Positions 45,799-61,492 of a stretch of DNA of 64,000 bases are shown in pieces. Each line of letters starts with the position of its first letter. Position 1 is the first letter of the stretch. The stretch lies in assembly GCF_000993825.1 (NCBI RefSeq), contig NZ_CP011114.1, positions 310,001-374,000 on the forward strand, written 5' to 3'. The position numbers were made by a program, and so were the translations under genes. The notes under the pieces are model-generated. The model had not been told where the DNA came from. It ran no database searches and saw only the letters and a list, made by a program, of their open reading frames with translations. Source of the DNA: Paenibacillus durus ATCC 35681 (GTDB lineage Bacteria; Bacillota; Bacilli; Paenibacillales; Paenibacillaceae).

Positions 45799-46737
45799 TT
45801 AAGGCTGGGCTTGCCCGAAATCAGGGTCCCAGCGGTACTTGGCTTCCCGGATTTCCTGGACCCGGATATCGAGGCCGTTCCAGGACTCATCCGGGTAGGC
45901 GGAGATCAACTGATGCAGGCGGAGAAACCGGTCGCGCGGAAGCGAATGGGCGTAACGGCTGATGAATCCGGAGTAGAGCAGGGCGTAGCGCTTCATGCGG
46001 ACTGCCGCTCCGGCCACTGCGGCGAGGATCGCGGAGCCGCCCTTCATTTCAAGAATTTGGGCCTCATACCGCTGCACATAGCGCAGGGTGCGGTCCTTGA
46101 TCAAATCGCGGCGGAGTCTTGCGACTTCGCCGATGTATTCCGCGAGCAGCGGTTCAAAATCTCTTAGCAGCAGCTGCTCCATCTCAAGATCCATGTCCTT
46201 GCGCAGCCGGAAGCCGTGCAGCAGGGCGACGCGCTGCCTGGCGACGCGGTCGCCCCGGAGCAGCACGGCGATTTCGCGCAGCTTCTCATAGGCAAGCGTA
46301 TCATTCTCCCGCAGCACGGACACGGCTTCCTGCCGGTTGACCTCCAGGCCCTCTTTGACCGCGGCGATATTCCGGCCGAGCAGTTCGTCCAGGGTGCGCA
46401 GATTTTCGGCCGGACGCGCTTTCCGCTGGGCGGCGAAGAGCGCCGCCAGCAGGGCGAGCCCGCCCAACGCGCACAAGGCACGCTGCAGGGAGTCCGCGGC
46501 GAAATAGACCGCCGCCGCCGTCAGCAAGGCGACGATCAGCAGGGATACCGTCATGCGGCGTCCGGCAAGCGAAACCGCCCGCTCCTCCACGGAGACAAGG
46601 GCGGCTCTGCCGCAGTAGAGGCAGCGCTCTTCCGACAGGGCGGTGAACCGTCCGCATCGCTTGCATACACGCAATTTGCCGAAGGAATAGCGGGGGGCTT
46701 TGAAGGGACGGAGAACGACCGGTTTTTTCTTAGTCAT
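45799..46737 (-). CDS. Zinc-ribbon membrane protein next to the tubulin-like cluster
   Basis: 312 residues. The N-terminus holds a zinc ribbon (CKRCGRF...CLYCGRA, about residues 25-45), then two hydrophobic segments (about 63-80 and 83-101), and a long helical cytoplasmic C-terminus rich in Arg and Leu (MEQLLLRDFEPLLAEYIGE, DRFLRLHQLISAYP). ATG 46737 overlaps the stop of the small upstream gene by eight bases, so translation is coupled; GGAGG is ten bases away. It is divergent from the VWA/tubulin operon with back-to-back promoters. I do not recognise the family; context suggests a component or regulator of that system. Confidence 0.75.
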   Translation of the reverse strand: MTKKKPVVLRPFKAPRYSFGKLRVCKRCGRFTALSEERCLYCGRAALVSVEERAVSLAGRRMTVSLLIVALLTAAAVYFAADSLQRALCALGGLALLAALFAAQRKARPAENLRTLDELLGRNIAAVKEGLEVNRQEAVSVLRENDTLAYEKLREIAVLLRGDRVARQRVALLHGFRLRKDMDLEMEQLLLRDFEPLLAEYIGEVARLRRDLIKDRTLRYVQRYEAQILEMKGGSAILAAVAGAAVRMKRYALLYSGFISRYAHSLPRDRFLRLHQLISAYPDESWNGLDIRVQEIREAKYRWDPDFGQAQP

Positions 46738-46882
46738 GAGTTCTGTCGCCTCCATTCAGCGAGGCCAGCAGCCGCCCGTCGATCTCTTCCCGGGCAACCG
46801 GCCTGCGTCCCCGAAGGAAATAGCGGAGAATTTGGATGACGGTATAGAGAAACGTAATTCCGAGTATAACGTATGAAATCAT
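46730..46882 (-). CDS. Small membrane protein coupled to the zinc-ribbon protein
   Basis: 50 residues, too short for most gene callers. ATG at 46882 has AAAGGA eight bases upstream and a good promoter 120 bases before it. One hydrophobic segment (residues 2-22, MISYVILGITFLYTVIQILR-like) is followed by a basic RGRRP stretch and an acidic tail, so it is an N-out or N-in single-pass peptide. Its TAA overlaps the ATG of the next gene (ATGACTAA), strong evidence of translation. Function is unknown; it is likely a partner of the zinc-ribbon protein. Confidence 0.65.
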   Translation of the reverse strand: MISYVILGITFLYTVIQILRYFLRGRRPVAREEIDGRLLASLNGGDRTHD

Positions 46883-46998
46883 GGAGCTGTCCTTTCTTAG
46901 GGGAACGGTGCGCGCTCGAATAGGGTTCGAAAAAGGCTGACGGATGCCGCCCGTCCCTGCCTGCTCAGCGTTCCTTAAGTTGAAGTTTACAGGGTTTA

Positions 46999-47027
46999 AT
47001 TATATCATAATGGCATGCTATTGACAG
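46999..47027 (-). promoter_or_regulatory. Promoter of the small membrane/zinc-ribbon operon
   Basis: On the minus strand CTGTCA (47027-47022) and TATAAT (47004-46999) are separated by 17 bases. Confidence 0.55.
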
Positions 47028-47039
47028 AATTTAGCTGCC

Positions 47040-47088: not shown

Positions 47089-48915
47089 ATGCTTCGTAAC
47101 GATGTCCGAAATAGAAGGTTATTGTCTTGGTTCACGCGGCGCCTTGCCGCGCTGCTGTTGGTATTCTGCTTCGCGGCGGGTCCGTTTGCGGCGTTACCGG
47201 CCTATGCTGCCCAGTCTGCTCCGCCGGGCGCGTCGTCGCAAATTGACGCCGTGCTGGTGCTCGACGTCAGCAATTCCATGAAGACGAGCGATAAGAACAA
47301 CATCGCCGGCGAGGCGATGAAGATGTTCATAGATATGCTGTCCGCGAAGGGGGACAAGGTCGGCGTCGTCGCCTACACCGACAAGGTGCAGCGCGAGAAG
47401 GCGCTCCTGACGATTAACTCGCCTTCGGATAAGCAGGATTTGAAGGATTTTATCGTCGGTCTGGATAGGGGCTCCTACACGGATATTGCCGTCGGGGTAG
47501 ATGAGGCGGTCAAGGTTCTTGAGAACGGCAGCGATCCTGCCCATGAGCCGATGATCGTGCTGTTGGCCGACGGTAACAATGACCTGAATGAAGCGACCGG
47601 CCGGACGCAGAGCGAGTCGGACCAGGAGTTGACCGCGGCGGTAGACACCGCCAAGAAGAAAGGTTATCCGATTTACACGATCGGCCTGAATGCGGACGGC
47701 AAGCTCAATAAGGCAAGTCTTGCCAAGCTGTCCGACCAGACGGGCGGCAAAGCGTTCGCGACGAATACCGCAGACGATCTGCCCGAGATTTTGAGCGAGA
47801 TTTTTGCCGATCATCTGAAGCTTAAAGTGGTGCCGGTGCAGTCGATAACGGCCAGCGGCGAGTACCAGGAGGTAACGGTGACCGTCCCGAATGCAAGCGT
47901 CCTGGAGGCCAACATTTCCATCATCTCGTCGAAGCCGGTAACGGCGAAGCTGACCGACCCGTCAGGGGCGGACGTGGCGATTCCTTCGAACAATGTGCTG
48001 CTGTCCAAGTCGTCGACGTACAGTCTGCTGAAGCTGCTGTCCCCGAAGGAAGGAGATTGGAAGCTCCAGATCAAGGGCGTTCCGAAGGATAAAATCGACA
48101 TCAATCTGATTTTCAACTACGATCTTGAGCTTAAAATGGACGCTGTGCCGTCCAAGACCTACAAGAAAGGCGATACGGTAGACATCTCCGCCCATTTATT
48201 CAACAATGGTACGCAGGTGAATGAAGCGGCACTGTACGGGAACATGAAGGCGGTGCTGCTGGCGACCGACCTGGACACCGGAAAGACGGAAGAGCTTCCG
48301 CTGGACAATTCAGGCGGCGAGTTCAAAGGGAGCTTCGAAGTTAAGGACAGCCACAATTACGAATTGAAAGTCCGGGCGGAAGAGAGCAGCTTCTACCGCG
48401 AGAGCCAAGTAGTGAAAGTGAACGCGGGCGGAGCGGCCACCCAGGCGCCTGTCACCGCAGGTACGGCCGGCAGCGAGCAGCAGGACGGCGGCAGGTCGTG
48501 GACCTTGATTCTGATTATTGCCGGAATCCTGCTGGTTCTGGCGGCTGCCGCCTTTATCTGGATGCTGCGGAAGAAAGCGAACCGCGGTTTTGTCGGCCAG
48601 CTGGTCATTGAGGTGCTGGACGGGAACACCGGCGAGAAGACGTATCCGCAGTATAAGAAGCTGACGGGCTTCCGGGGCAGATTCAATCTGCACCAGCTGC
48701 TTCAGCTTGCTCCGGAATTTAGGGAAAGCGAGAAGCTGGTCTTCACGCCGGGCAACCACGACCGGCTGCAGCTTCGCGGCGGCGACGGGATCGCCGTTGA
48801 GAAATCGGGCCGGGCCGTCGACGCCTCCCGGGGGCTGGAACTGAAGAGCGGAGACCGCATTTCGGTTCCGCTCAGCAGCGTGGACAAGACGATTATGCTG
48901 GAATATTTGGTATAG
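47089..48915 (+). CDS. Secreted/membrane VWA-domain protein, first gene of the tubulin-like cluster
   Basis: 608 residues. The signal peptide (residues 1-40) ends AYA-AQ. A von Willebrand A domain follows with a complete MIDAS (DVSNS at residues 59-63, the Thr region GSYTDIAVGV, and LLADGNND). Two beta-sandwich regions (about 250-450) lead to a Thr/Ala linker and one membrane segment (about 470-492), and about 110 cytoplasmic residues end the chain, with an FHA-like look (GNHDRLQLRGGDGIAV). It would bind a metal-dependent ligand outside while talking to the cytoplasmic tubulin-like and GTPase partners. GAGGAG is eight bases before the ATG. The next gene starts 17 bases on. Confidence 0.88.
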   Translation: MLRNDVRNRRLLSWFTRRLAALLLVFCFAAGPFAALPAYAAQSAPPGASSQIDAVLVLDVSNSMKTSDKNNIAGEAMKMFIDMLSAKGDKVGVVAYTDKVQREKALLTINSPSDKQDLKDFIVGLDRGSYTDIAVGVDEAVKVLENGSDPAHEPMIVLLADGNNDLNEATGRTQSESDQELTAAVDTAKKKGYPIYTIGLNADGKLNKASLAKLSDQTGGKAFATNTADDLPEILSEIFADHLKLKVVPVQSITASGEYQEVTVTVPNASVLEANISIISSKPVTAKLTDPSGADVAIPSNNVLLSKSSTYSLLKLLSPKEGDWKLQIKGVPKDKIDINLIFNYDLELKMDAVPSKTYKKGDTVDISAHLFNNGTQVNEAALYGNMKAVLLATDLDTGKTEELPLDNSGGEFKGSFEVKDSHNYELKVRAEESSFYRESQVVKVNAGGAATQAPVTAGTAGSEQQDGGRSWTLILIIAGILLVLAAAAFIWMLRKKANRGFVGQLVIEVLDGNTGEKTYPQYKKLTGFRGRFNLHQLLQLAPEFRESEKLVFTPGNHDRLQLRGGDGIAVEKSGRAVDASRGLELKSGDRISVPLSSVDKTIMLEYLV

Positions 48916-48931: not shown

Positions 48932-51900
48932 ATGAAACCGGTCGTAAGAGAACATATTCAGCAGCTTGACGTTTCGCTTGGCGGAGGTATCGTCAGCGAC
49001 AAAATCAGAGTTGACACGATCGACAATCCGATTCTGATTATCGGTCTTGGAGGAACGGGCATCGACGCCCTGCTTCGCCTGAAATACCAGATCAACCGCC
49101 GGTTTAAGCTGCCGGAGGACCCGATTTCCAAGAAGAAGCGGGATAAGCCGGACAATGTGGAGTTCCTCGCTTTCGAGACGAATGAGCAGGACCTCGGCAA
49201 GAAATACAGAGGCATCGGCCTCGACCCGCAGAACGAGTTCGTGAGACTGTCCAACGCCGAAATCGGCGGACTGCTGCAGAACCGCAGCATCCTTGACCCC
49301 TACATTACGGAATGGCTGTCGCCCGAGCTCAGCATTACGGACGGCATGAACGGCGCCGCCGGCGTACGGCAGGCGGGACGGCTGCTGCTGTTCACGAAGA
49401 TCAACCAGGTTGTGGGCGCGATCGACAAGAAGATCAAAACTTTGTCGGTCGGTACGAACAAGAAGCTGATGGTCTTCCTGCTGACGGGGTTGTCCGGCGG
49501 CACGGGCAGCGGCTCTTTTCTCGACATCGCCTACATTGTGCGGGGCATCATCGAGCGTGATTACGGCTCTGCCGGAATCGACCGCGTCAATACACTCGGG
49601 TATCTGTTCACGCCGGATGTGAACCTGTCGAACAAGAGCCTCAGCGAGCATACCCGCGAGTACATCCGAAAGAATGGCTATGCTGCGCTCAAGGAGCTGG
49701 ACTACTGGATGAACGTGGACAGCCGGGGCGAGCGTTTCCGCCAGCAGTATGGCAATATTTTGACCGTCAATTCACCGCTTCCTCCGTTCAATTTGTGCCA
49801 CCTCATTTCGGCGACGAACACGGAAGGCAAGCTGCTGGAGAACGCATACGACTACTGCATGAACGTGACGGCGGAGAACATTACGAACTTTATGGCGAGC
49901 GAGGAGAAGCAGTCGGGCGAGGAGTTCGCCATCCACGACTATATCAGCAACATCCGCACGAACATCGCGCAGATGCACAAGAGCTATCCGGCCAACTACG
50001 AATACAACATTATCGGGGCTTCGTCCGCCGTACTACCGATTGAGGAAATGACGACGTACCTTGCTTACCGTCTGTTTGACAAAATGGATAAAATGTTCCA
50101 TCAGGCGCCAGGGCAGGAGGATGTCGAAAAAATAGCCCGCAAGCTCGGCATCGATCTGGAGAGCGTAATCAAGTCGTTCGAAGCCCGTGTGCAGGAGCCG
50201 CTGCCCGGCTATGAGAACAGTGAACGGCTGAGCCATTCCAATGTTATTAAGCATCAGGTTGTCGATATGGACACCGAACTGGAGCAGAGCTTTCTATCGC
50301 GCGTAAGAGAAGAGTACATCAAGGTGAGAAAGCAGCTTCCCGGCGAAATCGTCGGACGCTTCGGCGAGGAGATGGAGCGGACGTTCCTGCATCCCGAGCA
50401 GGGGCCGTTCTATGTGTCGCGGCTGATCTATACGGAAAAAGGCTTCTGCATCCTGAAGCTGATCCAGTCCTACATTGAAGCGCTGCGCGAGAATCTGCTG
50501 CGTCTGCCGCGTGATATCGAGACGGCCCGGGAGTCGGCGGAGGACAAACTGGGCGATGCGCGGAGCGCTTTTGTCTCGAAAGAGAAGAAGAAGAACGCTT
50601 ATATCGACGCGAAAATCAACGAATATTGGCTGCATGCCGACACCGAGCGCACCGAGCGGATGATCGAGTTCTACGAGGATCTCTACGAGCTGCTGAACGA
50701 GGAGAACAGCCGGATTTACGGCGTGTTTACGGAGATTTTGAACGCGCTCAGCTCGATTTTTTCCAAGAATGGGGATATCCTCACAAGCGGCGAAGAACAG
50801 ACCGACCACAAGGGCAACAAGACGTATTACTGGAATATCGTAAGCGTGCCGGACATTGCGCAGACGATCTCGAAGATTATGGATCAAAAAGACGGCGACG
50901 ACCTGATCCGCGACTTTTCCCGGGAAATGCTGCGAAATTCCAGCCGCTGGGTCAGAGAGCAGGAGATCGACATTGTCCGCTCCATTTCCGAGTTCCTTAG
51001 CGACAAGTTCGGGGATCTGATCACCCGGTCGATGGAGGATTTTCTGACGATGAAATACGGCAGCGAGGAGCCGCTTGACAAGCTGGTGGAACGTACGGTT
51101 GCCGGGAAGCTTGACGAGGAGGCCGTGCCGGTCTTCCATCTCAGCAACAGCTCGGGCAGCCTGCACTTCCCTTCATGGGGCTTCGTATCGGTGCCTGTGA
51201 AGGCGCCGGGCATTCTGAAGGGGATTCGCAATTACCAGAACAACGCGCTCGGCAAATCGCATTTTACGGTCAAGGAGAGCGAAGTCAAGAACCGGATATT
51301 CTGGCTGAATACGCGCAACGGCGTGCCGCTGTTCGTCTATACGCCGCTGCGGGTATATGAAGAGAACTACGAGCGTACCATTCTCGACAAGGAAGGAATC
51401 GGCCGCCATCTGGTGCAGACGGACAAGAACAACTGGACGTATCTGCCGTCGCCGATTCCGGAGCAATCCTGGGGTGATACTTACAGCAACGCGCGGGTAC
51501 GCGAGTACAATGCCAGAGTGCGCGCAGACTTCGCCAAGGCGCTGGAAGCCGGAATCATTGTTGAAAAAGGCTTGGATGAGAATACGAGCAACCGCTATTC
51601 GGTCGTGTTCAGAAAGCCGTTCGATATTGAAGCGTTCCTGCGCGGCTACGACCTTCAGCTTCATGCGCCCCGGCCGAATCTGGGGGAAGTGAAGAAAGCG
51701 GCGGACGAGCTGAGAAGGCTGCGTGAGAATGGGCTGGAGCGCGAAGTCGCGAAGGATATCTTCGGAAGCATTAGCCGGGAGCTGGCCCAGGAAAATCTGA
51801 TCCGCTCGCCGCAGCTTACAACAAGAGTGCGCGAGGAGCTGGCGAAGGTTGAGGCGATCTCGGCCAAAGCGGAAGAGCTGGATGCGGTGCTGCGCCAGTA

Positions 51901-52321
51901 TCTGGACGAGGAGAAATGGCTGGACCAGTTCTTGGAGTCCCTCTACACCGATGTTATTGTGAAAAAAGGGGCGCTCTTCGTCTACGACAAAGACGAGGAA
52001 GAGGACGCTTGGGAGCCGTTCGCCAATCTGATGAAGGAACGCAGCTACGTGGAATATGCGGTCTACAGCCGTTTCCGCTCGCTGGATGAGAAGAGCCGCA
52101 GCGTACTGCTGCGGAAGACGGCTCGGCGCGCTGCGGAAATGACCGCGTCCGAGGATGTGTCCCCGCTGCTGAATAAGCTGGATAGCCTGTATGAAGCCTT
52201 CCTGGAATCGCGGGACAGCCTGGAATACGAGCGGGTGGAGCATGCTGATGGCGACGAAATGTACGCTTTCTACAAGGGTATGACCGGAAAGCTCGGCAGC
52301 ATCCGCAGAAAGCTGAAGTAA
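48932..52321 (+). CDS. Tubulin-like GTP-binding protein (Tubulin_2 type)
   Basis: 1129 residues. The N-terminal 400 or so read like the tubulin/FtsZ superfamily: IIGLGGTGIDALLRLK (residues 33-48) opens the nucleotide fold, and LLTGLSGGTGSGSFLD has the tubulin signature loop GGTGSGS at residues 189-195. Residues about 430-1100 are mostly helical with coiled-coil stretches, unlike FtsZ or TubZ. This matches the Pfam Tubulin_2 class rather than cell-division FtsZ. There is no membrane segment. Polymerisation and GTP hydrolysis are inferred from the family. AGGGGG precedes the ATG, and the next gene begins four bases after its stop. Confidence 0.88.
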   Translation: MKPVVREHIQQLDVSLGGGIVSDKIRVDTIDNPILIIGLGGTGIDALLRLKYQINRRFKLPEDPISKKKRDKPDNVEFLAFETNEQDLGKKYRGIGLDPQNEFVRLSNAEIGGLLQNRSILDPYITEWLSPELSITDGMNGAAGVRQAGRLLLFTKINQVVGAIDKKIKTLSVGTNKKLMVFLLTGLSGGTGSGSFLDIAYIVRGIIERDYGSAGIDRVNTLGYLFTPDVNLSNKSLSEHTREYIRKNGYAALKELDYWMNVDSRGERFRQQYGNILTVNSPLPPFNLCHLISATNTEGKLLENAYDYCMNVTAENITNFMASEEKQSGEEFAIHDYISNIRTNIAQMHKSYPANYEYNIIGASSAVLPIEEMTTYLAYRLFDKMDKMFHQAPGQEDVEKIARKLGIDLESVIKSFEARVQEPLPGYENSERLSHSNVIKHQVVDMDTELEQSFLSRVREEYIKVRKQLPGEIVGRFGEEMERTFLHPEQGPFYVSRLIYTEKGFCILKLIQSYIEALRENLLRLPRDIETARESAEDKLGDARSAFVSKEKKKNAYIDAKINEYWLHADTERTERMIEFYEDLYELLNEENSRIYGVFTEILNALSSIFSKNGDILTSGEEQTDHKGNKTYYWNIVSVPDIAQTISKIMDQKDGDDLIRDFSREMLRNSSRWVREQEIDIVRSISEFLSDKFGDLITRSMEDFLTMKYGSEEPLDKLVERTVAGKLDEEAVPVFHLSNSSGSLHFPSWGFVSVPVKAPGILKGIRNYQNNALGKSHFTVKESEVKNRIFWLNTRNGVPLFVYTPLRVYEENYERTILDKEGIGRHLVQTDKNNWTYLPSPIPEQSWGDTYSNARVREYNARVRADFAKALEAGIIVEKGLDENTSNRYSVVFRKPFDIEAFLRGYDLQLHAPRPNLGEVKKAADELRRLRENGLEREVAKDIFGSISRELAQENLIRSPQLTTRVREELAKVEAISAKAEELDAVLRQYLDEEKWLDQFLESLYTDVIVKKGALFVYDKDEEEDAWEPFANLMKERSYVEYAVYSRFRSLDEKSRSVLLRKTARRAAEMTASEDVSPLLNKLDSLYEAFLESRDSLEYERVEHADGDEMYAFYKGMTGKLGSIRRKLK

Positions 52322-52325: not shown

Positions 52326-54818
52326 ATGATCAGATCACTGGCAATGCATTATGCGGCGGAATACGCCGCCCGGGAGGACCGACTGCAGGATCAGGGTGAC
52401 AGGCGCAGCAGCATTCATTACCCTGCTCTGTTTCTGTTTGTAGGAGAGAAGACGGCGCCCGCAATCCGGCCCGTGCTGGATAGCTGCCGCCGCAAATGGG
52501 ATAACGCCGGCGGCGTTCTGGCGGTGCATGCCGTTCCAGAAGGCTGGGAGGCGGAGGAATCCGGCGGCCGGAAGGATGATGCGTCATTCGCTGGAGCCGG
52601 GAAGCCTGCATATGGCGGCACCGCTCCCGGCGGCGTACATGACCGGAGCTGGGTTCCGGCGTCCGCCGTGACAGACTGGCTTTCAGGCCAAGTGAGAACG
52701 ATGATTCTTCCCCGGTCTGAAGGCCGCGATCCCCGCACGCTCCGCCGGGATCTGTACCGGGAATTTCACGGAGAGCAGCGCTATCTGGCGGAGATGAACA
52801 CCGTACTGCGGCGCTTGACGGACGGCATAGCGGATTACGGCCGTCTGTATTCCTCCTTCGATGTCATTCATCTCTCCATTATTACGCGGGTCGACGACCC
52901 GCTTAATGTGCTGCTGCCGGAAATCACGCTGCTGACCCGCGCCGTGCTCGGCCAGTCGTTCAAATCGGTGCAGACCGACCTGTTCGCCCTGATCAGCGAA
53001 CGGGAACAAGCCGAGAGCTTCGGGCTTTCCAGCTCTGTGGGATTGGCTTTCTTGCGTGAGCTGGAGGGAATGCAGGCACCGGATTATGAATATACCGCTC
53101 CGCTGCTCGTCACGGAAGACGGGCTGTCCATTCCGGTCAGCCACGGTCCTTCGCCGCTGTTCGACCTTGTTTACGTCCTATCGGATAAGAACGAGCACGG
53201 CACGTCTCCGGCGGGCGGAATGGAGGACAATTACGAAATTATTTCCCATATCAGCCTGCTGAAGAATGTGATGCGGCCTTCCGGCGGCTTCGGCCCGGAA
53301 CAGGCCGGCTACAACAATATGGCGTTCAAAAGCGGAATCAGGGGCAGCACGGGCCGGCAGGGATACGCCTCTGCCGGCTTCTCCGGCGTCAAACGGCCGA
53401 ACCGGCAGATTGCGCTGGCTGTGCTGTACTCTACGTTCCGCCGGATCAGGGAGGATATGTCCCGCGAGAGCCGGCTCAGCCCGCGTGAACGGCTGGAGCT
53501 GCTGGGCTTAAGCCCTGACAGTCTGCGGGAGCTGGCTCGGCGGCTGCTCCCGGATAAGGAAGGAATCCTTGAGATGACGGGCTTGATGAGCCATGGACGC
53601 CCTTCCTACCATGAGCTTAGAAGGCTGTCTCTTCGCGAAGCGGAAGAGCTGATCTTCGGCGGCGGCGGCGAAGCCTACTTTCAGAGCAATTTCGCTTCGC
53701 CCGCAGCTAAGCGGCTGGAAGCCGCCGATCCCCTGCGGGAATGGGCGCCGCTGCTAGCTTCACCAGATGGAGCAAATCCGGGAATCACGTTCTTCCAGTT
53801 GGCGGAGTGGACCGCTGACAGGGACGATGCCGGCAGCGTGCTGCACGGGCTTCGCCAGCATATGGCCGGCCTCAGAGCAGCGATTGTCTCATCACGGGAA
53901 GAACTGGAGCTGCTGTACGGGGACAGTGTGGACCGGCTGCCTTTTCAGCGGGTGCCGCTGATGGATAAGCGGACGGTCCGGAATTTCATCCATTATCTGT
54001 TTGCCGAAGGCTACGGCGCAAAGTATGAGCTGCTGCTGCTAGAGAGCGAGCTGGCGCTGTGCGCCCGCCTTGAAGCCGGACTGGAGTCGCTCCATTCAGC
54101 AAGCGTCCAGCGGGTGAAGACGATGGAGCGGCTGGAGGAGGAGCTGAAGGCGGCGGCGCTGGACAGCATCGGCCGGGCCGAAAGCGATATTGGCCGAAAC
54201 ATTATGGAGTATTACCGCATCGTTACCGATGAAGTGATCGGCGAGATCGAAGCTCGGCGCGGTCTCGGCGCCCTGGTGAGCGAGCGTTATATGGGAAGCA
54301 TGCCGGACCTGCTGGACCAGGGCATTGTTACGGTGCTGGAACGGCTGATCGAGGTATGCGGCCGGGAAATTCTGACGGCGGAGCCTTTTGCGCTTTCCTT
54401 CGAGGAAGAACTGCTGCGGCGTGCAAATGTCGCGGCGGCGTACGACAACCGGGAGGTATTATCTAAGGAGGAGCTGTTCCGGCGCCTGTACCGCTCGCTG
54501 GAAGAGGAGGCGGCCATCCATGTCCGTCTCTTCGAGTACACCCAGGAGCACCGGCATGAGGAAAAATATTTCTTCGGCGACAGCGGCTCGGAATTTATGC
54601 GCTATGCGCTTTCTGCGGACGAGAAGACGCGCATCTACCGGCTGGGCTATGTGCATGAGCTGCGGCGCAGCGGCGTGGAGAAGCTGAACCTGATGGGCGG
54701 GTTCCATCTGGAGGACCTGTTATACTACCGCAACGGCCGGATCTATTATGAGACTTATTTACAGAATGGCTATGAACTGCATGGCGTGGACGAAGAGTCG
54801 CTTCCCGCTCTGCGCTAG
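52326..54818 (+). CDS. Large unrecognised cytoplasmic partner of the tubulin-like protein
   Basis: 830 residues with no signal peptide or membrane span. I recognise no catalytic motif. Residues about 1-330 are alpha/beta (HYPALFLFVGEK, FDVIHLSIITRVDDPLNVLLPEITLL) and could be a diverged nucleotide-binding or tubulin-like fold without the glycine loop; 330-400 is Gly-rich; the rest is strongly helical (ELRRLSLREAEELIF, RLEEELKAAALDSIGRAES). Its start lies four bases after the tubulin-like stop with a weak ribosome site, which suggests translational coupling and a fixed stoichiometry with that protein. Confidence 0.75.
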   Translation: MIRSLAMHYAAEYAAREDRLQDQGDRRSSIHYPALFLFVGEKTAPAIRPVLDSCRRKWDNAGGVLAVHAVPEGWEAEESGGRKDDASFAGAGKPAYGGTAPGGVHDRSWVPASAVTDWLSGQVRTMILPRSEGRDPRTLRRDLYREFHGEQRYLAEMNTVLRRLTDGIADYGRLYSSFDVIHLSIITRVDDPLNVLLPEITLLTRAVLGQSFKSVQTDLFALISEREQAESFGLSSSVGLAFLRELEGMQAPDYEYTAPLLVTEDGLSIPVSHGPSPLFDLVYVLSDKNEHGTSPAGGMEDNYEIISHISLLKNVMRPSGGFGPEQAGYNNMAFKSGIRGSTGRQGYASAGFSGVKRPNRQIALAVLYSTFRRIREDMSRESRLSPRERLELLGLSPDSLRELARRLLPDKEGILEMTGLMSHGRPSYHELRRLSLREAEELIFGGGGEAYFQSNFASPAAKRLEAADPLREWAPLLASPDGANPGITFFQLAEWTADRDDAGSVLHGLRQHMAGLRAAIVSSREELELLYGDSVDRLPFQRVPLMDKRTVRNFIHYLFAEGYGAKYELLLLESELALCARLEAGLESLHSASVQRVKTMERLEEELKAAALDSIGRAESDIGRNIMEYYRIVTDEVIGEIEARRGLGALVSERYMGSMPDLLDQGIVTVLERLIEVCGREILTAEPFALSFEEELLRRANVAAAYDNREVLSKEELFRRLYRSLEEEAAIHVRLFEYTQEHRHEEKYFFGDSGSEFMRYALSADEKTRIYRLGYVHELRRSGVEKLNLMGGFHLEDLLYYRNGRIYYETYLQNGYELHGVDEESLPALR

Positions 54819-54872: not shown

Positions 54873-56147
54873 ATGCAGCGAAAATTAAATCTGCTACTCC
54901 TCTTGTTTAGTCTGATTGGCGGAGCGGTCGCCTTTTGTTTAGGCGAGCTGCTGCTGGGGCGTCTGCTCGGAGAATGGCCTTCCATTCTGGTCATCGGCCT
55001 TTATTTTGCCATTGTGGCGCTTGGCATGGGGCTCGGCTGTCTGCTGGCGGAGATGATTTCGCCCAGACTGAACGGCTGGTCATGGCGCCAGCGCTACCTT
55101 GGCTTATCGTGGAAGCTGCTCCCGCTGGCCGTTGTTATACTGCTGGGCGTGGGGATATTGATGGAGTTCGTATATGAACTCAATTTTGGCGGTCTAAAGA
55201 CGGTCAAGGATGTCGTGATGGTCATTGACGATTCCGGCAGCATGGAGCAGAGCGATCCCGGCAACAGCCGCTACTCGGCAGCCCGGGACCTCGTGATGCG
55301 GATGGATGGGGATAACAAGGTAGCCGTACTGACGTTCAGCGATGAGGCGATGGTCGTTCAGCCTCTGACTTCGCTTGCGAAGGCGGGGAACCGGGAGCAG
55401 GTGACGTCAGCCATTAACAATCTGCGGACGACTCAAGGCGGAACGAATCTCAGCGGCGCGCTGTCGGAGGCGCTGAATGTCATTAACGGCGACAGTGCCG
55501 CCGACCGTGGAGCGATGGTTATTCTGCTGTCGGACGGAGTAAGCCGGCTTGATACCAGTACGGAGCTTCAGGCGTACGTGGACCGCGGTATCGCAGTTAA
55601 CACCATCGGACTCAGCCTGAGCGATCCTTCCGGTCCTGCCCTGCTGAAGTCAATCGCCGCGACAACCGGCGGACAATATTATGATGTGGAGGACGCGAAC
55701 CGGCTGGCCGACATTTTCCGCCAGATTTACGACCGTCTCGGCGACCGGACGCTGGTTACGGAGCGGACGGACAACACGCAGCATAGTCCTTACTACGGGG
55801 CCCTGCGTATTCTGTCGCTTGTATTGATCGGCGCCGCGCTCGGGCTCGGGCTCGGCATCGTCTTCGACAACCGCCATCTGGCCAAGAGCTTCGGCCTGGG
55901 AGGGATCGTGTCTGGCCTCCTGGCCGGCCTCACGCTGGAATACGGCCTAAGCAGCCATGGCTTCCTGAATGCGATGGTGCGGCTGCTAGCCGTGCTGCTT
56001 CTGACCGGAGTAATCGCGCTGTTCACCGCAATCGTTCCGGTGGGAGAAGGGCGCCTGACCCGGAGGGGGCGGGGAGAAGCACAGCCGTCCCAGCGACCGT
56101 CGCAGGGTTTTCCGACACGCGGGAATCGAAGCAGCAAAGGCTTCTAG
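54873..56147 (+). CDS. Polytopic membrane VWA-domain protein
   Basis: 424 residues. Three membrane segments (about 5-25, 33-58, 76-98) precede a VWA domain with intact MIDAS (DDSGS at residues 119-123, TQGGTNLSGALSE, LLSDGVSRL). After it come three or four more hydrophobic segments (about 305-395) and a basic C-terminal tail. The VWA domain is followed by NTIGLSLSDP and GGQYYDVEDANRLADIF, typical of BatA/YehP-like domains. By the hydropathy count the VWA domain probably faces outside, like that of the first gene. AAAGGATG lies upstream; the previous stop is 54 bases away. Confidence 0.85.
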   Translation: MQRKLNLLLLLFSLIGGAVAFCLGELLLGRLLGEWPSILVIGLYFAIVALGMGLGCLLAEMISPRLNGWSWRQRYLGLSWKLLPLAVVILLGVGILMEFVYELNFGGLKTVKDVVMVIDDSGSMEQSDPGNSRYSAARDLVMRMDGDNKVAVLTFSDEAMVVQPLTSLAKAGNREQVTSAINNLRTTQGGTNLSGALSEALNVINGDSAADRGAMVILLSDGVSRLDTSTELQAYVDRGIAVNTIGLSLSDPSGPALLKSIAATTGGQYYDVEDANRLADIFRQIYDRLGDRTLVTERTDNTQHSPYYGALRILSLVLIGAALGLGLGIVFDNRHLAKSFGLGGIVSGLLAGLTLEYGLSSHGFLNAMVRLLAVLLLTGVIALFTAIVPVGEGRLTRRGRGEAQPSQRPSQGFPTRGNRSSKGF

Positions 56148-56186: not shown

Positions 56187-56828
56187 ATGAGGTACATCGA
56201 GCATTCACCGGACTTGCCGGCGATCACGGATATAACCTCGCGCGTGGAGGATCGGACCTGCACGCTCCGGTGGCGCTGGCCGGACGGCCTGCAGGCGGTC
56301 TATATCCACAAAGGCCCAGGCGGCGGAGAGCATCCGGAAGAGGACAGCCGTCCGCCCGGTAGTTTGAAGCTGTATACGCGTGAAGAATACAAGGCGGGCG
56401 GCGGTTATTATGACCGTCTGGAAGAAATCGGTCTGGTCGTCTATACTGTGTTTGCCCGGGTGACGGAGAATGGGGAGACTCTGCTGGTCCGCCAGAGGGA
56501 CGGCGAGAACCGTACGACCGTCAGCGCGGGCAAAGCCCGGATCTATTACGCGATTGACCGCAAACGGGGCTTGTTCCGCAAGGAACAGACCGTACATATG
56601 ACCATTACGGCGGAAGTTCCCGTCGGCAGGGAAGTCCTGTGCTATGTCAAAAAACGCGGCGGTTATCCGGCGGATAAAGAGGATGGCATCCGCTTTCCCT
56701 TTGTCCAGGATTTCGCGCCCGGACGGAACGCTCTTCCGCCGATTGAGATCGGTAAGGATGATCACATCCGTATCTTTTTTACCGACGGGCCGAAATATGG
56801 CCGGTACTATGAGCTTGTGCCGGAATGA
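56187..56828 (+). CDS. Small beta-rich protein of the tubulin-like cluster
   Basis: 213 residues from ATG 56187 (AAAGGGG ten bases before); a TTG at 56166 with AGGTGA upstream is an equal alternative. Alternating strands (CTLRWRWPDGLQAVYIHK, LVVYTVFARVTENGETLLVR, ARIYYAIDRK) suggest two fibronectin- or Ig-like beta domains. There is no signal peptide or membrane span. The name cannot be given. It is last of the first tight block of the cluster, before a 311-base gap with repeats. Confidence 0.7.
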   Translation: MRYIEHSPDLPAITDITSRVEDRTCTLRWRWPDGLQAVYIHKGPGGGEHPEEDSRPPGSLKLYTREEYKAGGGYYDRLEEIGLVVYTVFARVTENGETLLVRQRDGENRTTVSAGKARIYYAIDRKRGLFRKEQTVHMTITAEVPVGREVLCYVKKRGGYPADKEDGIRFPFVQDFAPGRNALPPIEIGKDDHIRIFFTDGPKYGRYYELVPE

Positions 56829-56973: not shown

Positions 56974-57125
56974 TTTGAAATATAACGTACCTGCGTTTTG
57001 AAAAGACGCCGTCAGGCGTTTCTTCTTAAAATATAAGAAAGTATAAGCTTCGCGCTTAGCATTTGCCTTATATTTCTACGAGAAACGATACCGTCCCTAA
57101 CAGGACGGCGCAGCCGTTTCTTCTT
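56974..57125. repeat. Dispersed repeat, copy B (two hairpin modules flanking the palindrome)
   Basis: Order: a hairpin GCGTTTT/AAGACGC ending in CGTTTCTTCTT (56974-57027); the palindrome AAATATAAG...CTTATATTT (57029-57075) with core AAGCTTCGCGC; then GAGAAACG...CGTTTCTTC (57080-57123) with a different inner stem CCGTCC/GGACGG. It fills most of the 311-base gap 56829-57139, in which no gene is visible, and ends at the ribosome site of the GTPase gene. Confidence 0.8.
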
Positions 57126-57139
57126 GGGAGGGAGAATAT

Positions 57140-58396
57140 ATGTCCTTTTTCAGCCGCTTTTTAAAAAAGAATCAGCCGCAGCCGCGCCCGCTTTTTTATG
57201 ATATTGTATGCCCGTACTGCTTCAGCAAATTTGCTCCTTCGGACGTGGTCTTTCGGGCCGCGCACAGCCGGGATGACGATGAAGATTACGCGCTGGGCGA
57301 AGACGATGTGCTCAATAAATACCGCGAGCGGTTCGGACTCGATTCGGTGGACGATCTCGAAGCGATCATTCCGCCGTCCGACATTCCGGAGGAGCATCAT
57401 CATTATACCGATCATGTGCTGACCGGACTTACCGACCGCTACGGAAAGCTTACCCGCAGACGTCTCTGCCCACACTGCCACAACGAGCTGCCGGTGACCG
57501 CGGGGAAGGTGCCGAGCAACATCATTTCGATTATTGGCGCATCTCAGGTCGGCAAATCGGTCTACATGACCTCGCTGATCCACACGCTTCAGCATACGAC
57601 GGCCGGACATTTCGACGCGGCCTGCATGCCGCTGAACGCCGAAATCAGCCGCAAATTCCGCAGTTTGTACGAGGACCCGCTGTTCGAGCGCGGTGATCTG
57701 CTGTCTTCGACCCAGAAGGAGAAGATGCAGGAGCCGTTTATTTTTCAATTCGTGTTCAAGAATGAGGAGAAGCCTCCGCTGACGCTCGTCTTCTTCGATG
57801 TCGCGGGAGAGGGCATGGTCGATCAGGACTACCTCGGGCTGCACGGCCAGCATATCAAGAATTCGGCGGGCATCCTGTTCATGGTCGATCCGCTGCAAAT
57901 TCGTTCAATCCGCGAGAAAATCCACATCAACATTGGCGACCGTCCCGGCGAATGGGTCTCGCAGTATGATGAGCCGCGCGACGTGGTGCTGACGATGTTC
58001 GGCGATTTCATCGCCTATCAGGAGAAGAGCAGAACGGATATTCCAACCGCCGTTGTACTGACCAAGAGCGATATGCTGCACTCGCTGAAGGACGAGGACG
58101 GGGATTACATTAAAGCGAACAGCAACGTATTCAACAATTACGTTCACCGCGGGACGCTGAATATGGACGAGGTCGGCAATATCGACGGCGAGATCAGCTA
58201 TTTTATCGGGAAGGTGGACCGTCCGTTCAAGGATACGATGGATGTGTATTTCTCCAATACCGCCTACTTCGCGGTTTCGGCACTTGGCAGCAATCCCGTC
58301 GATCAGAAAATCGAAGGCGTCGTCAGCCCCATCCGGGTGGATGAACCGTTCCTGTGGCTGCTGCACAAGCTGAAATTCATCGAGGGGAGCGATTAA
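57140..58396 (+). CDS. P-loop GTPase with split zinc ribbon
   Basis: 418 residues. A zinc ribbon is split around an acidic insert (CPYC at 24-27, CPHC near 110). The nucleotide site follows: Walker A GASQVGKS (133-140), the DxxG-type motif FFDVAGEG (about residue 220) and LTKSD (about residue 312) for guanine recognition, i.e. G1, G3 and G4 of a TRAFAC GTPase. It resembles the DO-GTPase-type proteins found beside GAP1 genes; that link is from memory of the family. No membrane span. GGGAGGGAG lies before the ATG. It overlaps nothing but is three bases from the next gene. Confidence 0.85.
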   Translation: MSFFSRFLKKNQPQPRPLFYDIVCPYCFSKFAPSDVVFRAAHSRDDDEDYALGEDDVLNKYRERFGLDSVDDLEAIIPPSDIPEEHHHYTDHVLTGLTDRYGKLTRRRLCPHCHNELPVTAGKVPSNIISIIGASQVGKSVYMTSLIHTLQHTTAGHFDAACMPLNAEISRKFRSLYEDPLFERGDLLSSTQKEKMQEPFIFQFVFKNEEKPPLTLVFFDVAGEGMVDQDYLGLHGQHIKNSAGILFMVDPLQIRSIREKIHINIGDRPGEWVSQYDEPRDVVLTMFGDFIAYQEKSRTDIPTAVVLTKSDMLHSLKDEDGDYIKANSNVFNNYVHRGTLNMDEVGNIDGEISYFIGKVDRPFKDTMDVYFSNTAYFAVSALGSNPVDQKIEGVVSPIRVDEPFLWLLHKLKFIEGSD

Positions 58397-58399: not shown

Positions 58400-61300
58400 G
58401 TGAGTATTCATTCGGAAGCCGGCATCGCCCAGCAGATGTACACCCGTGAACGGCGCGGTGTCTACCGCTCCACTGAGGGTTTTGACACGGTGGCGAAGTC
58501 GGAGAGTCTGGACAATAATTTTGTCAAAAAAATCCTGCACCCCTTCTGCCTGTACGACGCTCCGGCGGAGCTGGCCGCAAAAGGCGAGAAGGACGAGTCG
58601 CTGTATCCGCCCGCGCTGCATCTGTTCCATCTCGAGAGCGGGGAGACCGTGCTTGGGCAAAGCGTCTTCCAGGCGGCGGATTTCACGGGTCTGCGCAGCG
58701 CTTTTTTCACCCACAACTATGTTCTTCCCGCCTCGCGAGCCGAAGAAATCGTCCGGGATTACGGCGGTTATCTGCACGCGGACTTTGCGAATGGGTTCAG
58801 TGGAGAACCGGGGGAAGCCCTGCCGGTGCTAAGCGGCATTCCGGTACCGCGCCGAAATCGCCCAAGGCCGGCGGAAGTCTTGAAATCGCTGGGCATTAGC
58901 GAGGAAATGTTCAAAAGCCTGCTCCAGGCGGTCATGCAATCGGTGTCCGGCAAAAAGAAGATCTACATATCGCTGAACACGCCCGTAAAGGAGCTGTCCG
59001 CACGGGCAGCCGATTTGACCGAAGTGCTGCTGTGCTGTCTTCCGTTTGAATTCCGGCGCAGACTCGGGGTCATCACATATGCGAAGGAGCCGCAAAGCCG
59101 TAAATACATCCACCTGACGTTCGTGGAGACAGGCTCGCTGCGCCCCGGAGACCGGGCGACGGAGAAGGATTTTATCTTCGATTTCGCCGCCGGACGGACG
59201 CTGAACGCGGATTTTGCCTCCGCTCCGCAGCCATTTCTGGAGCTTGCCTGGGAGCTGCTGCGCGAACCCAAGGCTGCAGAAGATTTTGCCGTGTTTGCGG
59301 ATATTATGCTGGGGGGAACGAGCGCGGAGCGGAAGCTGTCGCTTGGGGCTTATAACGAGCTGGCTGTTTTTTACCGGATTGAGCAGGGAAATGAAGCTTT
59401 ATATACGGAGAACAAAAGCGCTGTGCTCAGCGGGCTGCTGGGCTATCTGGATGGAGAAGGAGCGCTGGAATCGAAAATCCGGCTAAATGATCTGTTCCTG
59501 GAGCGCTTTGACCGCGAGTTCGATGCCGTGCGGCAGAAAAACATTCCGGAGAAGGCAGTGCTGGAGAGCTTCCGGGACTACTTTTCGCTGAAGGGACATA
59601 ACTACCGGACGCGCATTGTGGATTATTTCATCAACGGGATGCTGAACGCGCAAAATGCGGGCCGCGTGGATGCGCTGTCGGCGGCGTACAGCGTGATTGA
59701 AAGCAGCGGGGAACTGGCCGCCGCCTTTTTCGGCAAGCTGCTGACGACGCCGGTCTTTGCCCGGCTGCTGTTCCAGCCTTATGTGGAACTTAGGCTTGCA
59801 TCCGCCGCGAGAGCTGCGGACCTGCTGGAATTTGTCGTGCATTGGGACAGGTTCATGCCGGAAGCGCTGGGACAGCCTGCCGTCGTTGACAGCCTTAGGG
59901 ACTATTTGCCCGAGAAACTGGCGCGGGAACGCGATCCTGTTGCGGCTGTGGCGGCGATCCATGATTACATCGAGCAAGCGGAGAAAGACCGCCGCCGGAG
60001 GGGCGGAATCCGCCCGGAAGCGTTGGCGCTTCAGAAGGAGCTGGCCGCTGCGGCGGACCGGTATCTGCTGGACCGGCTTTCGCTTGACGACATTACCGAG
60101 GAGCAGCTGCTAGAGCTGTCGTTCGTCCGTTTTTCGCTTGATATGGGCGAGTGGGACCCGCCGCTTGATCTGCAGAGCAGACGGAAGGCGAACGTGCTCC
60201 GCGCGGCGTACCGCTGGTTCGGTGAAGAGAATCCGGACGAGCATATTTTTGACGGGTTGTCCCCGCAGGAGATGGATGATGTGCAGCTACTCGGACGGCG
60301 CTGGCTGAAGGAGGGCCGGGGTGCGGAGCCGTTCGCCCGCCTGCCGCTTGCCTTTTACCACAGCCGTTCCCGCGAGGGAGGGCCGCTGGAGTATGTCGCG
60401 CTGCTGGAGCATATCCGCCGCAATGCGGATGGCGATAAGGAGGCGGTGTACCGCTTCCTGGCCTGGTCGCAGGACAGTCCGCTATTTTCCATTTCCTCCA
60501 AGAAGCTTCATCCAGGCTACCGGCGGGCGATTCTGAAATATTTTGCGGGCCATGACCGTGATGCGTTCAAGAACCGCGATTTCCGTAAAAATTACATGGC
60601 CGCAGCCGGACCCGCTCTGCAAGGCGTATACGGCGAAGCCCGGTCGCAGGCAGCCTCGCCGCTCGCGCAGTGGGTACGCCGCAGCCGGTCTCGGCTGATG
60701 CTCCTCGGAACGGCCGTCATCTTTCTACTGGCCGCCGGAGTTCTGGCCGCCAGCTTGCTGAAAGGCGGCGGAGACGAAGCCGCTCCGGCAGCCTCGCCGG
60801 AGCCTTCCCCTTCGCAGGGGGCGGGGATCGTAAGTTATCCCGAAGCCGCCGCGTATCTTGAGCAAGGCGACGGTAAGGGCGGAAGCTCACTGATGTTCGC
60901 CTTCGCCTCTGCAGACGCCTGCCGAAAGTTTAACCCTGCGGAGATTAAAGTGGATTCCGGTGCAGGAAAGGCTGTCATCTATAAAGTTGGCGGTCTGGAC
61001 CATAGCTGTGGGGCTCCGGAATCCCCAGCTCCTTCGGGCGCTGCGGACGCGGGGGATTCAAGCACAGCAGGCGGTGCGGTTGCGGCAGCAGACGGAAGCG
61101 GCGGAACAGGTGGGAATGGAACGGATGGAAATCCGGCGGACGCAGAGACCCATGCGGAAGGAGCGGCATCCGGCGGAGCGTCTTCGCCTGCTTCGGCTGC
61201 TCCAACGGATTCTATGGAAGATGCGGCCGGAGCAGCCGGTTCGCCGTCACCGTCAGGGGAGCCGCTTGCCGCTTCAAGCACGCCGGTATCTCCGCTCCCA

Positions 61301-61492
61301 TCTGATAACGGCTCCGCATCGCCAGAACCTGCGCCATACCAGGTGAGGGTAACGCTGGTATCTTCCCCCAAGCTGACTGCCGGAAGCATGATTGAGGCCG
61401 AAGATTACACGCTGGTTCTGAAGGATGATCCGCGTGCGGCATCATCTCCGGCGGCTTCCGCAAGCGCGAGCCCGAGCCCGGCGGCGAAGTAA
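58400..61492 (+). CDS. GAP1-like GTPase-associated membrane protein
   Basis: 1030 residues from GTG 58400, three bases after the GTPase stop. The N-terminus (QMYTRERRGVYRSTEGFDTVAKS, then LHPFCLYDAP and FFTHNYVLP) resembles the GAP1-N2 domain of GTPase-associated protein 1; the long helical middle would be GAP1-M/C. One membrane segment (about 770-792) is followed by a small outer domain, a 110-residue Ala/Gly/Ser/Pro-rich low-complexity stretch and a final beta segment. So the GTPase-facing part is inside and the tail outside. Its function is not known; the domain names are from family resemblance, not a search. Confidence 0.8.
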   Translation: MSIHSEAGIAQQMYTRERRGVYRSTEGFDTVAKSESLDNNFVKKILHPFCLYDAPAELAAKGEKDESLYPPALHLFHLESGETVLGQSVFQAADFTGLRSAFFTHNYVLPASRAEEIVRDYGGYLHADFANGFSGEPGEALPVLSGIPVPRRNRPRPAEVLKSLGISEEMFKSLLQAVMQSVSGKKKIYISLNTPVKELSARAADLTEVLLCCLPFEFRRRLGVITYAKEPQSRKYIHLTFVETGSLRPGDRATEKDFIFDFAAGRTLNADFASAPQPFLELAWELLREPKAAEDFAVFADIMLGGTSAERKLSLGAYNELAVFYRIEQGNEALYTENKSAVLSGLLGYLDGEGALESKIRLNDLFLERFDREFDAVRQKNIPEKAVLESFRDYFSLKGHNYRTRIVDYFINGMLNAQNAGRVDALSAAYSVIESSGELAAAFFGKLLTTPVFARLLFQPYVELRLASAARAADLLEFVVHWDRFMPEALGQPAVVDSLRDYLPEKLARERDPVAAVAAIHDYIEQAEKDRRRRGGIRPEALALQKELAAAADRYLLDRLSLDDITEEQLLELSFVRFSLDMGEWDPPLDLQSRRKANVLRAAYRWFGEENPDEHIFDGLSPQEMDDVQLLGRRWLKEGRGAEPFARLPLAFYHSRSREGGPLEYVALLEHIRRNADGDKEAVYRFLAWSQDSPLFSISSKKLHPGYRRAILKYFAGHDRDAFKNRDFRKNYMAAAGPALQGVYGEARSQAASPLAQWVRRSRSRLMLLGTAVIFLLAAGVLAASLLKGGGDEAAPAASPEPSPSQGAGIVSYPEAAAYLEQGDGKGGSSLMFAFASADACRKFNPAEIKVDSGAGKAVIYKVGGLDHSCGAPESPAPSGAADAGDSSTAGGAVAAADGSGGTGGNGTDGNPADAETHAEGAASGGASSPASAAPTDSMEDAAGAAGSPSPSGEPLAASSTPVSPLPSDNGSASPEPAPYQVRVTLVSSPKLTAGSMIEAEDYTLVLKDDPRAASSPAASASASPSPAAK

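What the first reader, a model, noticed from the sequence alone, without database searches (positions are those of the whole stretch)
45799..61492. Membrane-linked tubulin-like/VWA/GTPase/GAP1 assembly
Seen directly: a 16 kb divergent cluster with a tubulin-signature protein (GGTGSGS), two proteins with intact VWA MIDAS motifs and membrane spans, a P-loop GTPase with G1, G3 and G4 motifs, a GAP1-like membrane protein, a large unrecognised partner and a zinc-ribbon membrane protein, most genes separated by 3-60 bases. From family knowledge: Tubulin_2 and GAP1/GTPase proteins are known only from comparative genomics. Inference: extracellular VWA domains sense or bind a ligand, and GTP-driven filament or complex formation responds inside. 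The combination in one locus appears undescribed experimentally.
Basis: partly seen in the sequence, partly recalled or inferred. Interest (0 to 1): 0.9.

Follow-up and report, generated by a model that had tools for sequence, protein, structure and literature searches.

The report
Membrane-tethered bacterial tubulin–GTPase gene module
A Paenibacillus-type soil bacterium carries a tightly kept set of about nine genes for what looks like a membrane machine built around tubulin-like proteins, a molecular switch and surface-facing domains; gene-comparison papers described the set before, but its job has not been shown.

Summary
At 45799-61492 lie eight genes in two divergent arms: a zinc-ribbon membrane protein; two VWA membrane proteins with intact MIDAS; a Tubulin_2 protein (258.6 bits); its large partner; a small protein; a DO-GTPase2-type GTPase; and GAP1-N2/GAP1-M with one TM. 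I add a ninth, 50-aa membrane gene and a conserved divergent promoter block. The 'unrecognised partner' is probably a second, degenerate tubulin-like protein without the GTP loop.

The combination is not new: Makarova & Koonin 2010 described FtsZl1/vWA/GTPase operons, and Kaur et al. 2020 described this Firmicutes GAP1-N2 layout, predicting a conflict system. I found no experimental paper in the open-licence library.

New here: three marker proteins occur together in the same 71 of 148 Paenibacillaceae genomes. Content and order are identical in the 77 of 80 named loci long enough. The Tubulin_2 protein was not found in plasmid, phage and viral collections. The tubulin domain is about 94% identical, the GAP1 outer tail 17%. 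This fits a core-like membrane signalling or scaffold machine better than a variable-effector defence system, but function is unproven. Both structure models were poor.

The parts
   Evidence: orthologues in 78 of 80 loci; the four Cys kept in 79 of 79 sequences, window included
46730..46882 (-).
   Evidence: (matches in 61 of 80 loci at E<=1e-3)
46980..47035 (.). conserved divergent promoter-like block: + strand TTGAAG-17-TATCAT and - strand CTGTCA-17-TATAAT, with overlapping -10 boxes
   Evidence: (2 promoter-like sites, shuffles 0.4 +- 0.6); core TATATCAT in 67 of 78 divergent regions, against 1.8% of letter shuffles
47089..48915 (+). VWA protein 1: signal/TM, VWA (53-235) and beta-type domains predicted outside, TM 466-495, conserved tail 496-608 predicted inside
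48932..52321 (+). Tubulin_2 (FtsZl1) protein, 1129 aa, with T1 GLGGTG and T4 GGTGSGS; long C-terminal region
52326..54818 (+). probable second, degenerate tubulin-like protein, 830 aa; the place of the T4 loop reads TRVDDPLN instead of GGTGSG
54873..56147 (+). VWA protein 2: polytopic, VWA (113-285) predicted outside the membrane
   Evidence: topology inferred from hydropathy and charge
56187..56828 (+). 213-aa protein without TM span or known domain; could be the FNIII-type component of the published description, but FNIII was not detected
57023..57126 (+). copy of a dispersed ~105-bp repeat in the gap before the GTPase gene; not part of the machine
57140..58396 (+). DO-GTPase2-type GTPase with two CxxC knuckles (24, 110) and G1/G3/G4
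58400..61492 (+). GAP1 protein: GAP1-N2, GAP1-M, long middle part, one TM (763-791), Ser/Ala/Pro-rich variable tail predicted outside

Best explanation
One membrane-spanning complex, expressed from a shared divergent promoter. Two VWA proteins and the GAP1 tail face outside; the cytosolic face holds a GTP-binding Tubulin_2 protein with a GTP-loop-less tubulin-like partner, plus a GTPase with its cognate GAP1. Proposed working: binding or a mechanical/envelope change outside (VWA, GAP1 tail) is passed through the VWA1 inner tail and GAP1 to the GTPase switch, which controls assembly of the tubulin-like pair into a scaffold at the membrane (signalling or membrane/wall remodelling). Shown: genes, families, motifs, co-occurrence, order, conservation. 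Inferred: shared expression, complex formation, heteromer, topology, GTP cycling, stimulus and output. It is the Firmicutes 'tubulin theme' GAP1-N2 system of Kaur et al. 2020, read here as a lineage-core machine rather than a variable defence island.
For: The same 71 of 148 family genomes hold the partner, GAP1-N2 and the close Tubulin_2 protein (sets compared). In 70 of these 71 the Tubulin_2 and GAP1-N2 matches lie 8.9-12.7 kb apart on one strand of one contig; the 71st is split over two contigs. All eight genes keep order and strand in 77 of 80 named loci, the other three being cut by contig ends. The whole + arm is also in 10 of 12 stretches taken from further genera. The two tubulin-like genes are a median of 4 bases apart (IQR 2-4, n=78). 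Key MIDAS, G1, G3, T1, T4 and Cys positions are kept at 96-100%; the G4 Thr is Ala in 15 of 78. Mean identities: tubulin domain 94%, GTPase domain 86%, VWA1 inner tail 71%, GAP1-N2 and -M 59%, GAP1 outer tail 17%. Promoter block. No match to the Tubulin_2 protein in 72,556 plasmid and 50,697 phage records or in viral contigs. Its identity tracks that of FtsZ, Spearman 0.65, n=70, not corrected for shared descent. DO-GTPases were elsewhere predicted to act in membrane-related stress (PMC11237479, one passage).
Against: No structure supports the folds: AlphaFold models have mean pLDDT 57.7 (Tubulin_2 protein) and 64.8 (partner), and the fold search, run on the partner's model only, gave no match at E<=0.001. 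P0004 itself does not reach Tubulin_2, and hhalign probabilities are 2.6-3.8%. 77 of 148 family genomes lack the module, so it is dispensable at family level. The fast GAP1 tail would also fit an arms race. The left flank changes between clades, which allows relocation. The locus survey is biased to near relatives. No interaction, localisation or phenotype is known.
Confidence: 0.5

Rival explanations
1. A biological-conflict (antiphage or abortive) system, as Kaur et al. 2020 predict for GAP1-N2 systems: sensing triggers the GTPase/tubulin assembly, which harms or kills the infected cell.
For: Close match to their Firmicutes layout. Their table gives GAP1-N2 a strong association with multicellular habit. 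GAP1-N2 is absent from 77 of 148 family genomes. The outer tail of GAP1 is fast-evolving.
Against: No known effector domain over its cut-off. PADLOC gives one match in eight proteins, at E 0.04. Content is constant in 77 of 77 uncut loci instead of variable effectors. The tubulin and GTPase domains are nearly frozen. The Tubulin_2 protein is not on the plasmids, phages or viral contigs searched.
Confidence: 0.25
2. A membrane-remodelling or vesicle-forming machine in the sense of Makarova & Koonin 2010, in which the tubulin-like filament does mechanical work.
For: Tubulin_2 with intact T1 and T4 loops, and five proteins with hydrophobic spans in one module. This is their explicit proposal.
Against: They could not find T6-H7 in the family and left open whether it forms filaments. 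The probable second tubulin-like protein lacks the GTP loop. No fold evidence.
Confidence: 0.15
3. An unrecognised transport or secretion machine that uses the VWA proteins as outer receptors.
For: Polytopic VWA protein and several membrane proteins; a transport role was raised by a reviewer of the 2010 paper. Weak hints only: NCBIfam's chloride-channel model TIGR00868 matches both VWA proteins over the VWA part (39.1 and 46.9 bits against a cut-off of 900.85), and 1 of 20 VWA1 relatives matches EssA at E 0.0022.
Against: No transporter, channel or secretion family reaches its cut-off in any of the eight proteins.
Confidence: 0.07

Closest known systems
GAP1-N2-type GTPase-centric system, tubulin theme, Firmicutes version (Kaur, Burroughs, Iyer & Aravind 2020, PMC7159879)
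   Same: DO-GTPase with N-terminal Cys knuckles, GAP1-N2 with TM and polar tail, two tubulin-type genes, two vWA genes of which one is polytopic with an outside vWA (read: 12 passages and section 29)
   Different: YtkA and FNIII were not detected here; the parts read do not mention the minus-arm genes, the divergent promoter, the lost GTP loop of the second protein or constancy of content; no effector was found here for the conflict role
FtsZl1 / Tubulin_2 operons (Makarova & Koonin 2010, PMC2875224)
   Same: Tubulin_2 protein with long C-terminal part, vWA membrane proteins with MIDAS, diverged P-loop GTPase with Cys-rich part (read: outline and parts 1-3 of 5)
   Different: no OmpA-like protein or protein kinase among the eight genes; GAP1 was named only in 2020
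FtsZ
   Same: tubulin/FtsZ superfamily GTP-loop motif; this genome has both
   Different: FtsZ is in 148 of 148 family genomes and short; the Tubulin_2 protein is in about half, 1129 aa, with other domains and partners

Membership tests
Tubulin_2 / FtsZl1 | Tubulin_2 profile over the N-terminal domain with T1 and T4 GGxGxG loops | tested here: met
   258.6 bits, residues 35-385; T1 GGTG and T4 GGTGSG in 81 of 81 sequences, window included
Tubulin_2 / FtsZl1 | tubulin fold and ability to bind GTP and polymerise | tested here: inconclusive
   model mean pLDDT 57.7, not fold-searched; no PDB relative by profile at E<=0.1; binding and polymerisation not testable here
Tubulin_2 / FtsZl1 (for the 52326 protein) | homology to Tubulin_2 | tested here: inconclusive
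   12 of 71 family orthologues ring in the Tubulin_2 genome search, 4 over the cut-off; 23 of 47 members at E<=0.01, best 3e-6, but not P0004 itself. hhalign score 25.7 in register; 0 of 30 column shuffles reach it (largest 23.7), yet the probability is only 2.6%. Favoured, not proven.
Tubulin_2 / FtsZl1 (for the 52326 protein) | T4 GTP loop GGxGxG | tested here: not met
   TRVDDPLN-type sequence at the presumed equivalent place in 79 sequences; no GGTGxG in the protein. The equivalence rests on order of elements, since the Tubulin_2 matches cover only the part behind T4.
GAP1-N2 GTPase-centric system, Firmicutes tubulin theme | GAP1-N2 and GAP1-M domains, TM and polar C-terminal extension | tested here: met
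   145.4 and 93.0 bits; TM 763-791; tail 792-1030
GAP1-N2 GTPase-centric system, Firmicutes tubulin theme | GAP1-C domain | tested here: inconclusive
   none listed for P0008 at E<=0.1; I did not check that the library holds a GAP1-C model
GAP1-N2 GTPase-centric system, Firmicutes tubulin theme | DO-GTPase | tested here: met
   DO-GTPase2 30.3 bits over cut-off 27; 21 of 21 members match at E<=0.01
GAP1-N2 GTPase-centric system, Firmicutes tubulin theme | two N-terminal zinc ribbons on the GTPase | tested here: inconclusive
   two CxxC knuckles, kept in 78 of 78: enough for one four-Cys site; two full ribbons are not shown
GAP1-N2 GTPase-centric system, Firmicutes tubulin theme | two vWA genes, one polytopic with an outside vWA | tested here: met
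   outside location inferred
GAP1-N2 GTPase-centric system, Firmicutes tubulin theme | YtkA domain on one vWA protein | tested here: not met
   YtkA PF13115 rings in this genome only at 2458397-2458642, far from the module; not listed for P0002 nor among families matched by 20 members at E<=0.01, where GBD_Hemicentin (18) and MG2 (11) appear
GAP1-N2 GTPase-centric system | FNIII-repeat component | tested here: inconclusive
   0 of 25 members of the 56187 family match any Pfam family at E<=0.01; only a beta-spectrin chain at E 0.38 in the PDB
biological-conflict system | variable effector components between close relatives | tested here: not met
   the same eight genes in 77 of 77 uncut loci; the one optional neighbour found is a membrane-anchored protein family in 38 of 77. 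Unknown genes inserted in wider gaps (up to 1561 bases) were not examined.
biological-conflict system | protection against phage or a rival | not testable with these tools
   needs experiment

The most novel reading that the evidence does not exclude
A GTP-driven transmembrane cytoskeleton that runs beside FtsZ: an obligate pair of one GTP-competent and one GTP-loop-less tubulin-like protein, made in fixed ratio from adjacent genes, docked to outside-facing VWA receptors and switched by a second, TRAFAC-clade GTPase with its own GAP1 partner; a core envelope system of Paenibacillus and its order rather than a defence system.
Probability: 0.25. Interest if true: 0.85.

Novelty: new member of a known kind. 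Interest (0 to 1): 0.45.

Why it matters
The Tubulin_2/vWA/GTPase systems were predicted in 2010 and again in 2020, and I found no experimental test in the library searched. This locus is a compact, single-copy example in culturable soil bacteria. Its module boundaries, divergent promoter and candidate active/inactive tubulin-like pair are now defined, so the three proposed roles (membrane signalling, membrane remodelling, defence) can be told apart with deletions and purified proteins. If the pair polymerises, it adds a cytoskeletal branch tied to outside sensors.

Tried and rejected
Rejected as best reading, kept as rival: a plain antiphage island (one PADLOC match at E 0.04, no effector family over cut-off, constant content, Tubulin_2 protein absent from plasmid, phage and viral collections). 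Rejected: 'large unrecognised partner' as an unrelated protein.

Led nowhere: AlphaFold models of both tubulin-like proteins were too weak. Foldseek of the partner's model gave mostly helical pore-forming proteins and exportin/Ran entries at E>=0.088, meaningless at this confidence; the Tubulin_2 model was not fold-searched. PDB profile searches with A2 and A3 gave nothing. FNIII in the 56187 protein, YtkA in VWA protein 1 and a convincing family for the zinc-ribbon protein or for the optional membrane neighbour were not found. hhalign of the full alignments gave probability 3.8%. A T7-like spot around D336 of the Tubulin_2 protein (EEFAIHDYISNI, in 81 of 81 sequences) is a comparison by eye with recalled FtsZ T7 and is not claimed. 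The most widespread left-flank family besides the optional neighbour is in 16 of 77 loci.

Dropped before counts: in the 80-locus survey L033 and L034 (contigs of 6.2 and 5.2 kb) and L037 (contig ends inside the module) lack genes for that reason; the 27% hit of VWA protein 2 in L037 falls on VWA protein 1. Orthologue sets for motif and identity counts are smaller than 80 where an ORF could not be read to its stop or was cut, and the VWA1 set holds three truncated readings. L037 was not in the promoter alignment. Protein P0198, labelled with a Yersinia pestis source but 79% identical to the window protein (probably a mislabelled record), was listed and left out of all alignments. Only the best 120 of 257 and of 635 protein hits were listed, and the best 80 of 287 confirmed loci, so the locus survey is biased to near relatives; all 80 records are titled Paenibacillus or 'Bacillus sp. 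FJAT' (3).
Full report
OBSERVATION. The window is positions 310001-374000 of a single-contig 5.58-Mb genome. Its proteins are nearest to Paenibacillus ones: P. zanthoxyli (98% for the Tubulin_2 protein; 96% for the partner, locus L033) and P. durus (93% for the partner). All eight ORFs of the finding exist as stated. Pfam places the 48932 product in Tubulin_2 (258.6 bits), the 47089 and 54873 products in VWA, the 57140 product in DO-GTPase2 (30.3 bits; cut-off 27) and the 58400 product in GAP1-N2 and GAP1-M. The 45799, 52326 and 56166/56187 products have no family over its cut-off. Motifs were located by script: two MIDAS DxSxS, P-loop, DxxG, TKSD, GGTGSG, CxxC pairs and hydrophobic spans.

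CORRECTIONS AND ADDITIONS. The zinc-ribbon gene most likely starts at ATG 46737, behind a GGAGG. Between the two arms, a block at 46980-47035 is nearly unchanged in the window and 15 near relatives while its surroundings differ. It carries one sigma-70-like match on each strand with overlapping -10 boxes; two were found where shuffles give 0.4 (a consensus match is not proof). Its core TATATCAT is in 67 of 78 divergent regions examined, against 1.8% of letter-shuffled regions; the regions are related, so the count is not of independent events. Shared expression of the two arms is an inference. The 311-base gap before the GTPase gene holds a copy of a dispersed repeat: 44 matched pieces at about 40 places in this genome, a lower bound because 40 of 100 candidates were scored.

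CONSERVATION AS ONE UNIT. In 148 genomes of the family, the window's own included, GAP1-N2 was found in 71, the 52326 protein in 71 and the Tubulin_2 protein at 75-100% identity in 71, plus one 29% partial match in G088. These are the same 71. Tubulin_2 as a profile rings in 73 of 148; the two extra genomes, G088 and G031, hold other proteins. In 70 of the 71, the Tubulin_2 and GAP1-N2 matches lie 8.9-12.7 kb apart on one strand of one contig; in the draft G102 they are on two contigs. A scan of named genomes confirmed 287 relatives and kept the best 80. Of these, 77 hold all eight genes in the same order and on the same strands; the other three are cut by contig ends. Twelve further stretches were taken from genomes of the order. 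Ten (L133-L142) hold the whole + arm, nine of these the zinc-ribbon gene as well (not found in L133). L143 holds the module with a broken-looking tubulin frame, and L144 (G088) holds a different Tubulin_2 locus. Tubulin_2 rings in 174 of 296 genomes of the order; GAP1-N2 in 6 of 249 of the phylum.

RATES. Mean identity to the window: tubulin domain 94% and its N-terminus 97% (80 loci), GTPase domain 86% (77), VWA1 domain 72% and its inner tail 71% (78), GAP1-N2 and GAP1-M 59% (71), VWA2 domain 51% (77), GAP1 outer tail 17% (71). For comparison, FtsZ has a median of 89% (86-96) and the whole Tubulin_2 protein 80% (75-90) in the 70 other genomes with the module; the two correlate (Spearman 0.65), as mostly vertical descent would give, but this is not corrected for relatedness. 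The sets differ (80 named loci against 70 genomes, whole FtsZ against one domain), so the 94% and 89% are only roughly comparable; as a whole protein the Tubulin_2 protein is less conserved than FtsZ. No match to it was found in 72,556 plasmid records, 50,697 phage records or the viral contigs.

THE PARTNER. The 52326 family shows weak but repeated signs of being tubulin-like. Twelve of the 71 family orthologues ring in the Tubulin_2 search of whole genomes, four over the curated cut-off, over the part of the profile behind the T4 loop. 23 of 47 members match Tubulin_2 at E<=0.01, best 3e-6. Profile-profile comparison aligns 144 columns in register with score 25.7; none of 30 column shuffles reach it (largest 23.7), and six other module families, in seven comparisons, give at most 16.7. 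Against: P0004 itself does not match, hhalign probabilities are only 2.6-3.8%, and the model is poor. Kaur et al. state two tubulin-domain genes for the Firmicutes version, which fits. At the presumed place of the T4 loop the family reads TRVDDPLN with T, D, D, P and N at 96-100%, so GTP binding there is unlikely (inference). The two genes are a median of 4 bases apart (IQR 2-4, largest 182, n=78), in line with a fixed-ratio pair.

OPTIONAL NEIGHBOUR. In 38 of 77 loci with enough left flank a protein of about 600 residues with an N-terminal hydrophobic stretch follows the zinc-ribbon gene on the minus strand, 36 within 250 bases and two more than 2 kb away; in L043 it is split in two ORFs and in L094 only a short match remains. 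Homologues at 23-28% lie there in 9 of 11 module stretches of further genera: found in L134-L141 and L143, not in L133 and L142. It is not found in the window's genome (that search had no positive control). It is probably an ancestral part lost here (inference).

WHAT IT IS AND HOW IT MAY WORK. This is the Firmicutes tubulin-theme GAP1-N2 system of Kaur et al. 2020 (12 passages and section 29 read) and an FtsZl1 operon of Makarova & Koonin 2010 (parts 1-3 of 5 read). Two published features were not confirmed: YtkA is not in the module (its profile rings elsewhere in this genome) and FNIII was not detected. The first paper predicts biological conflict, the second membrane remodelling. The constancy of content, the near-frozen tubulin and GTPase domains, the lack of effectors and the absence from mobile records speak for a core-like membrane signalling or scaffold machine. 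The patchy presence and the fast GAP1 tail leave the conflict rival open. A 2024 paper notes a DO-GTPase in phage-shock-protein operons with a predicted role in membrane stress (one passage read), which suits an envelope role. Complex formation, GTP cycling, stimulus and output are inferred.

LITERATURE. Ten searches were counted; one search was an argument error. Their listings showed no experimental study of this module; the library holds open-licence papers only. PMC9871819 (four passages) sets Tubulin_2 proteins apart from the main FtsZ/tubulin tree.

VERDICT. A real and well-conserved module, correctly read by the first stage, but a new member of a published kind. The added points (ninth gene, divergent promoter, degenerate partner, constant content) sharpen the tests.

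Noticed in passing
61587-61777 (+): Cobalamin riboswitch (131.5 bits) directly after the module; the next ORF, from about 62045 by eye, looks secreted and runs off the window.
   Followed up: partly
57023-57126: Dispersed intergenic repeat of about 105 bp at about 40 places in the genome (44 matched pieces); a similar-looking stretch lies at about 61900-62010 (by eye).
   Followed up: partly
L144 (G088:C1:1375000-1394000): A different Tubulin_2 locus in the same family: 1123-aa Tubulin_2 protein (223 bits) between two large proteins of 728 and 747 aa without a Pfam family at E<=0.01; no GAP1-N2 match in that genome.
   Followed up: partly
L143 (G433:C1:930800-948800): Module with a broken-looking Tubulin_2 gene: matches split over separate frames, apparently also in the partner gene; decay or assembly error not resolved.
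   Followed up: no
G031:C22:61086-61370 and G130:C10:60981-61364: Weak Tubulin_2 matches in frames of 457 and 448 aa outside the module; the first overlaps a 35% FtsZ match: possible extra FtsZ paralogues.
   Followed up: no
protein P0198: A Paenibacillus-like Tubulin_2 protein filed under Yersinia pestis, probably a mislabelled or contaminated record; not used.
   Followed up: no
44088-45668 (+): GAF/PAS histidine kinase left of the module; among the loci a close match (81%) lies beside it only in L035, four others give 24% matches, so it is not part of the module.
   Followed up: yes
G000:C1:2458397-2458642 (-): YtkA-profile match (40.8 bits) in a frame with one TAG inside, far from the module.
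   Followed up: no
proteins P0010-P0129: Many orthologues of the 52326 protein carry the public name 'transcription initiation factor TFIID', which no result here supports; probably a propagated misannotation.
   Followed up: no
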